Assembly: GCA_022511485.1 (NCBI GenBank)
Contig: JAFLUJ010000003.1
Span: forward strand, 1 to 34,621
Origin: Oscillospiraceae bacterium
Lineage (GTDB): Bacteria; Bacillota; Clostridia; Oscillospirales; Ruminococcaceae
Direction: 5' to 3'
Length of the DNA stretch: 34,621 nucleotides
Part shown: one piece after another, positions 12,893-31,217 of the stretch
Layout of the letters: every line of letters starts with the position of its first letter
How positions within the stretch are numbered: position 1 is the first letter of the stretch
Notes under the pieces: generated by a model
Databases searched by the model: none
What the model was told of the DNA's origin: nothing
Seen by the model: the letters and a program-made list of their open reading frames with translations, nothing else
Position numbers and translations under genes: made by a program

Positions 12893-12911
12893 TTTGTCTG
12901 AGAGTTTTTTG

Positions 12912-12940
12912 TTGACTTATGGCAAAACATATGTTATACT
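12912..12940 (+). promoter_or_regulatory. Promoter of toxin-like module 1
   Basis: TTGACT, 17 nt, TATACT. Confidence 0.75.
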
Positions 12941-12998
12941 ATAAACAGAGCACACCTAACGGTGGACGGTTGCTCCTGAAAAGGAGGTGATAACCGAG

Positions 12999-13091
12999 AT
13001 GATCACATTGGCGGAGATTCTCCAGTTCATGTCACTCATTGTAGACGTTATCTCGCTATGCTTTCTTGTCTCAAAAAACAAGAAAAAGTAG
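12999..13091 (+). CDS. Type I toxin-like hydrophobic peptide 1 (30 aa)
   Basis: MITLAEILQFMSLIVDVISLCFLVSKNKKK*; AAAAGGAGGTGA upstream; TM plus poly-Lys tail; resembles the TxpA/BsrG holin-like toxin style. Missing from ORF track due to size. Confidence 0.75.
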   Translation: MITLAEILQFMSLIVDVISLCFLVSKNKKK

Positions 13092-13115
13092 TCGTTTTTA
13101 TATTTTATACATATA

Positions 13116-13155
13116 AAAATAGCCGCCCAGCTCCGACAAGTTGGCGGCTATTTTT
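13116..13155. terminator. Shared bidirectional terminator of module 1
   Basis: aaaaatAGCCGCCcagctccgacaagttGGCGGCTattttt. Confidence 0.8.
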
Positions 13156-13203
13156 ATAACCAATAACTAAAGGAGCAGCCGTTCATCGGTGTGCTCTTTT
13201 TAT
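13116..13203 (-). ncRNA. Putative antitoxin RNA 1, convergent with toxin 1
   Basis: Promoter TTGACA (13238-13233), 17 nt, TATAAT (13215-13210); transcript starts near AGAGCACACCGATGAACGGCTGCTCC and ends in the shared hairpin 13116-13155. Confidence 0.7.
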
Positions 13204-13319
13204 GTTTTCATTATACACCACACTTCCGCATTTGTCAAGTGTTTTCATAAAAATAGCGGGTAGGGCATAGAAAAAATGATCTATCCTCTATTTTCTATCT
13301 CTCTATCCTCTAATAAAAG

Positions 13320-15534: not shown

Positions 15535-15955
15535 GAAAAAATCCTCCTTGTTTTGTTTTAATTTTTTTCTTTATATTTATTTCCAAAATAAAATGGAAAT
15601 CAATATTAGTTGGACAGGCTGTCCGGAGTGACCGTTTTGGATAACCCGGGAGTTTTGCCTATCACGCTTATAATTCTAACATTTTGTTTTGAAAGTGTCA
15701 ATGTACAGTATAAACAAAAATTTAAATCAAAAATAATGACAAGCGCACAGATTTCAACAAAAAATTAAAGGATGGCAAAAATCTGCACAAAATTTTAGTA
15801 ACCAAAATGCAATAATTGTAACACTTTTGTAACCTTGTCCGTATCCGGGACGGGATGCATATACATATAAATCGTATGGGGGGATGGGGTCAATATGATC
15901 TTTTTGCTATTCGGGGGATATACATATTATATATTTGTGCTTTTTTTAAAAATGC

Positions 15956-15984
15956 TTGACAAAAGAAATTTTATGATGTATAAT
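15956..15984 (+). promoter_or_regulatory. Promoter of putative antitoxin RNA 2
   Basis: TTGACA, 17 nt, TATAAT. Confidence 0.75.
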
Positions 15985-15990
15985 ATTAAC

Positions 15991-16081
15991 ATAAAGGGCA
16001 CGCCGATGAACGGCTGCTCCCTTTATATTAGTTGTTTAATGAAAAAACAGCCGCACGTTGGGAACTGGGCGGCTGTTTTTT
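15991..16081 (+). ncRNA. Putative antitoxin RNA 2
   Basis: Starts ...AAAGGGCACGCCGATGAACGGCTGCTCCCTTT (same 5' motif as RNAs 1 and 3); ends in hairpin AAACAGCCGCacgttgggaactGGGCGGCTGTTTTTT. Confidence 0.7.
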
Positions 16082-16088
16082 GTCTGCC

Positions 16089-16193
16089 TTACTTTTTCTT
16101 GTTGCCTTTAATAATAGCAACAGTAAGGGAGATAACAGAGAGAAGCACTGTCGTATACAGAAATAAACATTCGTATGTAACATAAGCATCCAT
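16089..16193 (-). CDS. Type I toxin-like hydrophobic peptide 2 (34 aa)
   Basis: MDAYVTYECLFLYTTVLLSVISLTVAIIKGNKKK*; GAAAGGGGG upstream; promoter TTGACA (16288-16283), 17 nt, TATAAT (16265-16260). Confidence 0.78.
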   Translation of the reverse strand: MDAYVTYECLFLYTTVLLSVISLTVAIIKGNKKK

Positions 16194-16259
16194 GCTACCA
16201 ACCCCCTTTCTGTAATGAAAGGGAGCAGCCATCCACCGTTTTAGGCGTGTCCAGATAAT

Positions 16260-16288
16260 ATTATAACATATGTTCTGCCAAATGTCAA
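16260..16288 (-). promoter_or_regulatory. Promoter of toxin-like module 2
   Basis: Perfect TTGACA-N17-TATAAT on the reverse strand. Confidence 0.8.
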
Positions 16289-16315
16289 CAAAAAATCCCC
16301 TGAACGGGGATTTTT

Positions 16316-29230: not shown

Positions 29231-29262
29231 TGAACATCCTATTCGATAAATCCGCTTTTTTG

Positions 29263-29291
29263 TTGACTTATGGCAGAAAATATGTTAAAAT
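29263..29291 (+). promoter_or_regulatory. Orphan copy of the toxin-module promoter
   Basis: TTGACTTATGGCAGAAAATATGTTAAAAT, near-identical to TTGACTTATGGCAAAACATATGTTATACT at 12912. Confidence 0.7.
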
Positions 29292-29297
29292 GTAAAT

Positions 29298-29450
29298 AAG
29301 GACACACTAAAAACGGTGTCCTCGTTCCATGGCAAATGCTAACGCATTAGTGTAATAGTGATATAGAAGTTTTCACCAAATTAAGCTATAAGACCAATAC
29401 AGCGGATTATGTCAACCGGCTTTCTGTCATCAGGAAGTCGGTTTGTTTTA
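29298..29450 (+). ncRNA. Possible orphan small RNA or toxin-module relic
   Basis: 5' hairpin GGACACactaaaaacgGTGTCC after the promoter; 3' hairpin AACCGGCTT...AAGTCGGTT then TGTTTTA; no hydrophobic ORF. Confidence 0.45.
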
Positions 29451-30678: not shown

Positions 30679-30924
30679 GCACAGCGCCTCCTTTTTCTGA
30701 TTTATATTATTGTATCGCACTTTAAAAGGAATGTCTTGATGATTTGAGTATTTTTTGATCTGTATTCCGATACTATCAGCCTTTTGCCTGCGAGTTTTGC
30801 TTTCCTCGCTGCCGCTCGGAATTTTGCTAACGCAAAACCACAAAACATCGCCCCTTGTGTTATTGACATCTCAGGCTTCAGACATAATAAGCATTATCCA
30901 AATAACACAAAGGGGGTGGGTAAT

Positions 30925-31014
30925 ATGAAATTGAGTTTTGCAGATTTATGTCTGCTCATAAACACTATTTTAAATATTATCTCCCTTACATATACGGTAA
31001 AACGTAAAAAGTAA
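30925..31014 (+). CDS. Type I toxin-like hydrophobic peptide 3 (29 aa)
   Basis: MKLSFADLCLLINTILNIISLTYTVKRKK*; AAAGGGGGTGGG upstream; shares IISLT-TV and basic tail with peptide 2, and 3' UTR GTAAGGCAGACAAA with module 2. Confidence 0.75.
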   Translation: MKLSFADLCLLINTILNIISLTYTVKRKK

Positions 31015-31025
31015 GGCAGACAAAC

Positions 31026-31118
31026 AAAAATAACCGCCCAGCTCTTCCCCAAGTTTGACGGTTATTTTTGCAATCAGTCACAAGGGAGCAAACCGTTCAT
31101 CGGTGTGCCCTTTTTTAT
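31026..31118 (-). ncRNA. Putative antitoxin RNA 3
   Basis: Promoter TTGACA (31153-31148), 17 nt, TATAAT (31130-31125); 5' GGGCACACCGATGAACGGTTTGCTCCC; ends in shared hairpin TAACCGCCCAG...TTGACGGTTA. Confidence 0.7.
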
Positions 31119-31183
31119 GCTTTTATTATACACCCTTATTATCCATTTGTCAAGCGGTTTTTGCAAAATTAAGCCAACCATAA

Positions 31184-31217
31184 AAAACGGGTATCGGAAA
31201 TTCCGATACCCGTTTAA
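31184..31217. terminator. Terminator of the 31254 surface-protein gene
   Basis: AAACGGGTATCGGAAATTCCGATACCCGTTT palindrome. Confidence 0.75.

What the first reader, a model, noticed from the sequence alone, without database searches (positions are those of the whole stretch)
30851..31153. Type-I-TA-like module 3 with a replaced toxin-side arm
MKLSFADLCLLINTILNIISLTYTVKRKK* with the same antisense arm (TTGACA-N17-TATAAT, 5' GGGCACACCGATGAACGGTTTGCTCCC) and shared terminator. The toxin side lacks the family promoter/hairpin and instead has an imperfect 14-bp inverted repeat CCCCTTGTGTTATT (30851-30864) / AATAACACAAAGGGG (30901-30915) flanking a TTGACA-N16-TAATAA promoter. The right arm covers the SD. 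This is either a new regulatory arm or a recombination footprint.
Basis: partly seen in the sequence, partly recalled or inferred. Interest (0 to 1): 0.7.

Follow-up and report, generated by a model that had tools for sequence, protein, structure and literature searches.

The report
Small-toxin module with displaced promoter
This is one copy of a common bacterial peptide-toxin/antisense-RNA module whose toxin promoter has been lost where a dispersed leader repeat now sits, while the 'new inverted repeat' is the family's ordinary hairpin that hides the ribosome-binding site, so the copy is probably silenced or rewired rather than a new system.

Summary
The sequence features are real, but two were misread. 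Module 3 belongs to a genus-wide, multi-copy, type I toxin-antitoxin-like family: I extracted 43 modules from the window and other genus contigs. All 43 are predicted to hide the toxin's Shine-Dalgarno (SD) sequence in a leader hairpin. The '14-bp inverted repeat' is that hairpin in a long-stem form shared with paralogs, not a new arm; its interior aligns significantly with one paralog from the same genome. The TTGACA-N16/17-(TAATAA/AATAAG) 'promoter' lies in that hairpin's arm and loop. Its score is reached by 37 of 400 shuffles, and it is placed unlike the family promoter.

What is really absent is the family promoter plus first leader hairpin. Directly upstream of the SD hairpin (junction 30850/30851) lies a ~63-nt dispersed structured leader repeat, with about 35-40 copies in this genome. 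A second module, in another genome of the genus, carries the same repeat at the same position but keeps its promoter. An orthologous neighbour-gene locus in another genome lacks both repeat and module.

Best reading: a recombination footprint that removed the toxin promoter and left the antisense arm, terminator, ORF and SD hairpin. Transcription and toxicity are untested.

The parts
30788..30850 (+). Core of a dispersed structured 5'-leader repeat (called LE here), occupying the place of the family promoter and first hairpin; its usual 5' hairpin and its own SD are missing in this copy
   Evidence: Query 9-71 of the module DNA matches many places across the genus; copies listed with flanks; 40 model matches in this genome, this one at 30761-30865, E 8e-16; consensus structure with compensatory pairs
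30851..30915 (+).
   Evidence: 13/14 complementary; fold; 0/200 shuffles; interior aligns with paralog L047; SD sequestered in 43/43 modules
30863..30891 (+).
   Evidence: 10/12, 37 of 400 shuffles as good, 33 nt from ATG; not listed
30912..30919 (+). Shine-Dalgarno sequence of the toxin ORF (GGGGGTGG)
   Evidence: Sequence; mean pairing probability of its G residues 0.94
30925..31014 (+). Toxin-like 29-aa hydrophobic peptide MKLSFADLCLLINTILNIISLTYTVKRKK
   Evidence: 52-59% identical relatives in 5 other genomes of the genus; family alignment
31025..31070 (.). Shared bidirectional terminator hairpin
   Evidence: 19-nt arms, 84% complementary, A- and T-rich tracts on both sides; same position in paralogs
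31025..31118 (-). Predicted antisense RNA; 5' part GGGCACACCGATGAACGGTTTGCTCCCTTGTG carries an anti-SD stretch
   Evidence: (pairing with the SD region possible, -16.1 kcal/mol, but not cognate-specific)
31125..31153 (-). Antisense promoter TTGACA-N17-TATAAT, 12/12
   Evidence: 10-12/12 in all 43 modules

Best explanation
Module 3 is a rearranged member of a genus-wide type I toxin-antitoxin-like family. In the intact design (inferred from 43 modules), a toxin mRNA and a short antisense RNA are made from facing promoters and end at one shared two-way terminator. The mRNA leader folds so that the Shine-Dalgarno (SD) sequence is hidden in a hairpin, and the antisense RNA pairs with the terminator region to keep the message off and mark it for decay. 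In module 3 the toxin's own promoter and first leader hairpin are missing. At 30850/30851 the SD hairpin abuts the core of a dispersed structured leader repeat. The long inverted repeat is simply a long-stem form of the SD hairpin, and the TTGACA inside it is most likely coincidental. The toxin arm is therefore probably silent, or expressed only from weak read-in transcription with its SD hidden, while the antisense promoter remains intact. Shown by sequence: family membership, hairpin homology, promoter absence, repeat identity and an ortholog locus without repeat or module. Inferred: transcription state, toxicity and antisense action.
For: SD hairpin predicted in 43/43 modules. The long-stem form with the same interior occurs in paralog L047 (0/500 shuffles), with weaker support from L048 (8/500); L045 has a similar long stem but its interior gives no signal (239/500). 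Stem sequences change together: TTGTGTTATT/AATAACACAA, TTGCGTTAT/ATAACGTAAG, TTGCATTA/TAATGCAA. A family promoter with spacing 17 (16 in one module) is visible in 41/43 modules, mostly 55-118 nt from the ATG; the exceptions are module 3 and L055:722. The candidate inside the hairpin is at chance level. The repeat upstream is one of about 35-40 copies with compensatory base pairs; 17 of 19 inspected copies sit just before a start codon. L051 (another genome) has the repeat core fused to the SD hairpin of a different module at the equivalent point, with its promoter kept. The orthologous phosphatase locus in G001 lacks repeat and module; homology ends near 30762.
Against: No transcript data. The in-hairpin TTGACA is a perfect -35 hexamer, and one extra T relative to the paralogs creates it, so a secondarily acquired promoter is not excluded. 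The ORF, SD hairpin and terminator are all intact, with no obvious decay, which fits recent loss or continued use. Only one genome per species could be examined.
Confidence: 0.7

Rival explanations
1. The TTGACA-N16/17-(TAATAA/AATAAG) site is a real, newly acquired promoter. The toxin mRNA starts at about 30898, lacks the left arm, and so has an exposed SD; control rests on the antisense RNA alone.
For: Perfect -35 hexamer and best-scoring site in the interval (10/12). The leader from 30897 leaves the SD largely unpaired in the predicted fold. The one-base difference from the paralogs creates TTGACA.
Against: 37/400 shuffles contain an equally good site. The -10 is poor (AATAAG or TAATAA), and the stricter scan misses it. 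The distance to the ATG (33 nt) is unlike the 55-118 nt usual in the family. The -35 overlaps a hairpin arm shared with paralogs that use an upstream promoter.
Confidence: 0.14
2. The dispersed leader repeat is a functional replacement: read-in or weak upstream transcription passes through it, and its folded RNA together with the SD hairpin sets toxin expression.
For: The repeat core is intact and foldable; elsewhere it normally forms the leader just before a start codon. L051 has it in the same leader position with a promoter upstream.
Against: No good + strand promoter between 30680 and 30788, and the upstream gene is divergent. This copy lacks the repeat's 5' hairpin and its own SD.
Confidence: 0.12
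3. The inverted repeat is a DNA operator or an invertible segment that switches the promoter between its arms.
For: Near-perfect 14-bp arms 36 nt apart flank a promoter-like site.
Against: The arms are the stem of a hairpin predicted in every module, and the right arm is the SD itself. The interior aligns in the same orientation with paralogs. No invertase gene was looked for or noticed beside the module.
Confidence: 0.03

Closest known systems
par of plasmid pAD1 (RNA I/RNA II, Fst) and its chromosomal relatives
   Same: Facing promoters, shared bidirectional terminator, ~30-aa hydrophobic peptide, SD hidden in a leader stem-loop (description: PMC7472228).
   Different: The peptide is not Fst-like (no proline motif). 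The two 5' arms share an inverted, not a direct, repeat, and SD pairing by the antisense shows no cognate preference. Module 3 lacks the toxin promoter.
TxpA/RatA and BsrG/SR4 (Bacillus subtilis), Pfam Hol_Tox PF16935
   Same: Small membrane-type peptide with a lysine-rich tail. Six of 17 family peptides match Hol_Tox weakly (best E 1.5e-5). Antisense overlap at the mRNA 3' end with RNase III decay is the known mechanism for TxpA/RatA (PMC3531473).
   Different: The module 3 peptide itself has no Pfam match. txpA and RatA overlap by about 120 nt (PMC3531473), whereas here the two RNAs share one compact terminator.
TD-1/TD-2 RNA (Rfam clan CL00124), for the upstream repeat only
   Same: Several copies of the repeat give weak matches to TD-1/TD-2.
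   Different: All scores are below the Rfam gathering score, and most matches are on the strand opposite to the downstream gene; not a member on this evidence.

Membership tests
Genus-wide type I TA-like module family (defined here) | Short hydrophobic peptide of the family | tested here: met
   52-59% identical relatives; alignment A1
Genus-wide type I TA-like module family (defined here) | Antisense promoter and shared terminator | tested here: met
Genus-wide type I TA-like module family (defined here) | SD-sequestering leader hairpin | tested here: met
   homologous interior with L047
Genus-wide type I TA-like module family (defined here) | Toxin promoter with N17 spacing, mostly 55-118 nt upstream of the ATG, plus first hairpin | tested here: not met
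   replaced by the dispersed repeat
Type I toxin-antitoxin system | Peptide is toxic and the antisense RNA neutralises it | not testable with these tools
   Needs expression experiments
par/Fst family | Fst-like peptide with proline-containing motif | tested here: not met
   No proline in the module 3 peptide or in the aligned relatives; motif description
par/Fst family | Direct repeats giving a second pairing region over the start site | tested here: inconclusive
   The antisense carries an anti-SD stretch, but cognate pairs are no better than non-cognate ones (permutation p 0.59)
par/Fst family | Convergent transcripts sharing a bidirectional terminator | tested here: inconclusive
   Shared terminator and antisense promoter present by sequence, but module 3 has no recognisable toxin promoter; no transcripts seen
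Hol_Tox PF16935 (TxpA/BsrG type) | Match to the Pfam model at its curated cut-off | tested here: not met
   Module 3 has no match; relatives match weakly, 6 of 17
TD-1/TD-2 RNA (for the upstream repeat) | Rfam gathering score on the sense strand | tested here: not met
   best 38.1 bits against 48.7, opposite strand

The most novel reading that the evidence does not exclude
The dispersed element is an undescribed structured leader RNA that spreads as a unit to positions just before start codons, and it has captured toxin modules of this family at the same point (module 3 and L051), placing a toxin under the control of a genome-wide leader element.
Probability: 0.12. Interest if true: 0.65.

Novelty: new variant of a known kind. 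Interest (0 to 1): 0.4.

Why it matters
It shows how type I-like modules in this genus break and recombine: the antisense arm, terminator and SD hairpin persist while the toxin promoter is lost at a repeat junction. The comparison also exposes a multi-copy, structured, pre-start-codon leader repeat with compensatory base changes that has no Rfam match at threshold, which can be tested directly with reporters and RNA sequencing.

Tried and rejected
Invertible switch: rejected, because the interior aligns in the same orientation in paralogs. Cognate-specific SD pairing by the antisense RNA: tested on 43 modules, no specificity (p 0.59). Pfam, NCBIfam and PADLOC for the peptide: no match for module 3. 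Phage relatives of the peptide: none. Rfam at threshold for the window: none. Ten-base direct repeats ATTCCGATAC at 30764-30773 and 31200-31209 flank the repeat plus module but could be chance. Papers on TD-1/TD-2 were not found in the held library.

Full report
Observation. The antisense arm is a 12/12 promoter on the minus strand (31153-31125). The stem 31025-31070 has A/T tracts on both sides and can end both transcripts. The inverted repeat 30851-30864 / 30901-30914 is 13/14 complementary; 0 of 200 dinucleotide shuffles of the region hold one as good. The right arm covers the SD, and the RNA from 30849 folds at -22.9 kcal/mol (z -2.95). The promoter-like site between the arms is not above chance: 37 of 400 shuffles of 30680-30904 hold a site of equal score, and the stricter scan does not list it.

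The family. Searches of this genome and 20 others of the genus with the peptide and with the module DNA gave loci from which a script extracted 43 distinct modules. Each has a 26-35 aa hydrophobic ORF with a basic tail, a leader with an SD hairpin, and an antisense promoter (10-12 of 12 matches in every module); terminators were read by eye in those printed. In 41 of 43 a toxin promoter with spacing 17 (16 in one) is visible, mostly 55-118 nt before the ATG; the exceptions are module 3 and L055:722. A profile of the peptides finds relatives in 18 of 120 genomes of the family. Six of 17 aligned peptides match Pfam Hol_Tox weakly, best E 1.5e-5; module 3 itself does not.

What the inverted repeat is. 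In all 43 modules the SD G residues are predicted to pair with upstream sequence (mean probability above 0.5; 0.94 in module 3). Most have a short stem (CTCCC...GGGAG). A few have a long one: L047:692 (CTCCCTTGCGTTAT...ATAACGTAAGAAAGGAG), L045:376 and L048:860 (CCTTGCATTA...TAATGCAAAGG or similar). Module 3 (CCCCTTGTGTTATT...AATAACACAAAGGGG) belongs with these. The stem differences compensate each other, and the interior of module 3 aligns with that of L047 better than any of 500 shuffles of it (L048 8/500; L045 239/500, no signal). So the inverted repeat is inherited, not a replaced arm.

What was replaced. The family promoter and the first leader hairpin are missing. Directly upstream of the SD hairpin, ending at 30850, lies a ~63-nt sequence present in many copies across the genus. 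Its copies have a 5' palindrome, a three-way-junction core (CGAGTTTTG...CAAAACATCG), an SD and a further hairpin, then a start codon. An alignment of 19 copies gives 28 pairs, 10 with compensatory changes. A model of it finds 40 matches in this genome, the weakest few doubtful. Seventeen of 19 inspected copies lie 73-119 nt before an ORF of at least 60 codons, usually with another ORF ending shortly upstream. Outside the genus it is rare: 3 of 60 other genera. In module 3 the core is fused directly to the SD hairpin; the 5' palindrome and the repeat's own SD are absent. L051, in another genome, shows the same core fused to the SD hairpin of a different module at the equivalent point, but there the family promoter remains upstream.

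Locus history. The gene upstream (divergent, histidine-phosphatase-like by its sequence; not tested against families) has a 75% identical ortholog in G001. Its upstream region is alike up to about 30762 and then unrelated, with neither repeat nor module. Repeat and module therefore arrived, or were lost there, as a block or in steps; this comparison cannot tell which.

Mechanism. By analogy with par of pAD1 (PMC7472228) and TxpA/RatA (PMC3531473), intact modules should hold toxin translation down by SD sequestration and by antisense pairing at the 3' end. The antisense RNAs also carry an anti-SD stretch, but cognate pairs are not favoured over non-cognate ones (p 0.59), so any specificity must lie in the terminator overlap. 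For module 3 the most likely state is an intact antisense with a promoterless, SD-masked toxin. None of this is shown by experiment.

Limits. One genome per species, no strain comparison, no transcripts; scans of the named collection failed. The module set was drawn from sequence matches to this window and filtered for an SD and a basic tail, so it is not a census. The hairpin comparison rests on a few paralogs.

Noticed in passing
window 30788-30850; L098:805-937, L099:812-944, L089:2751-2885 and others: Dispersed structured leader repeat just before start codons, about 35-40 copies in this genome, compensatory base pairs, no Rfam match at threshold (weak TD-1/TD-2 resemblance, mostly on the other strand).
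   Followed up: partly
window 29256-29310: A solo family-type promoter followed by hairpin GGACACACTAAAAACGGTGTCC and CGTTCCATGGCAAATGC, with no toxin ORF after it; the same sequence type forms the leader of L051.
   Followed up: partly
window 30764-30773 and 31200-31209: 10-bp direct repeat ATTCCGATAC flanks the leader repeat plus module; could be chance or an insertion mark.
   Followed up: no
L055 (G015:C73), minus strand, ORF MSRNDIFTFALVICNVILIMQNNKKK: A second module without a recognisable toxin promoter but with a perfect antisense promoter.
   Followed up: no
window 12905-13245 and 15948-16295 (minus): Two further members of the module family in the same window, both with intact promoters on both sides.
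   Followed up: yes
L045, L054, L062, L071, L075: Modules often lie in tandem or pairs within a few hundred bases, some with identical peptides (L062 twice MNVSFTDLILLADLIINIISLTYNLIKKK).
   Followed up: no
window 29365-29411; contig ends of G007:C158, C53, C5: A ~47-nt stretch recurs near contig ends in a related genome, suggesting another dispersed repeat that breaks assemblies.
   Followed up: no
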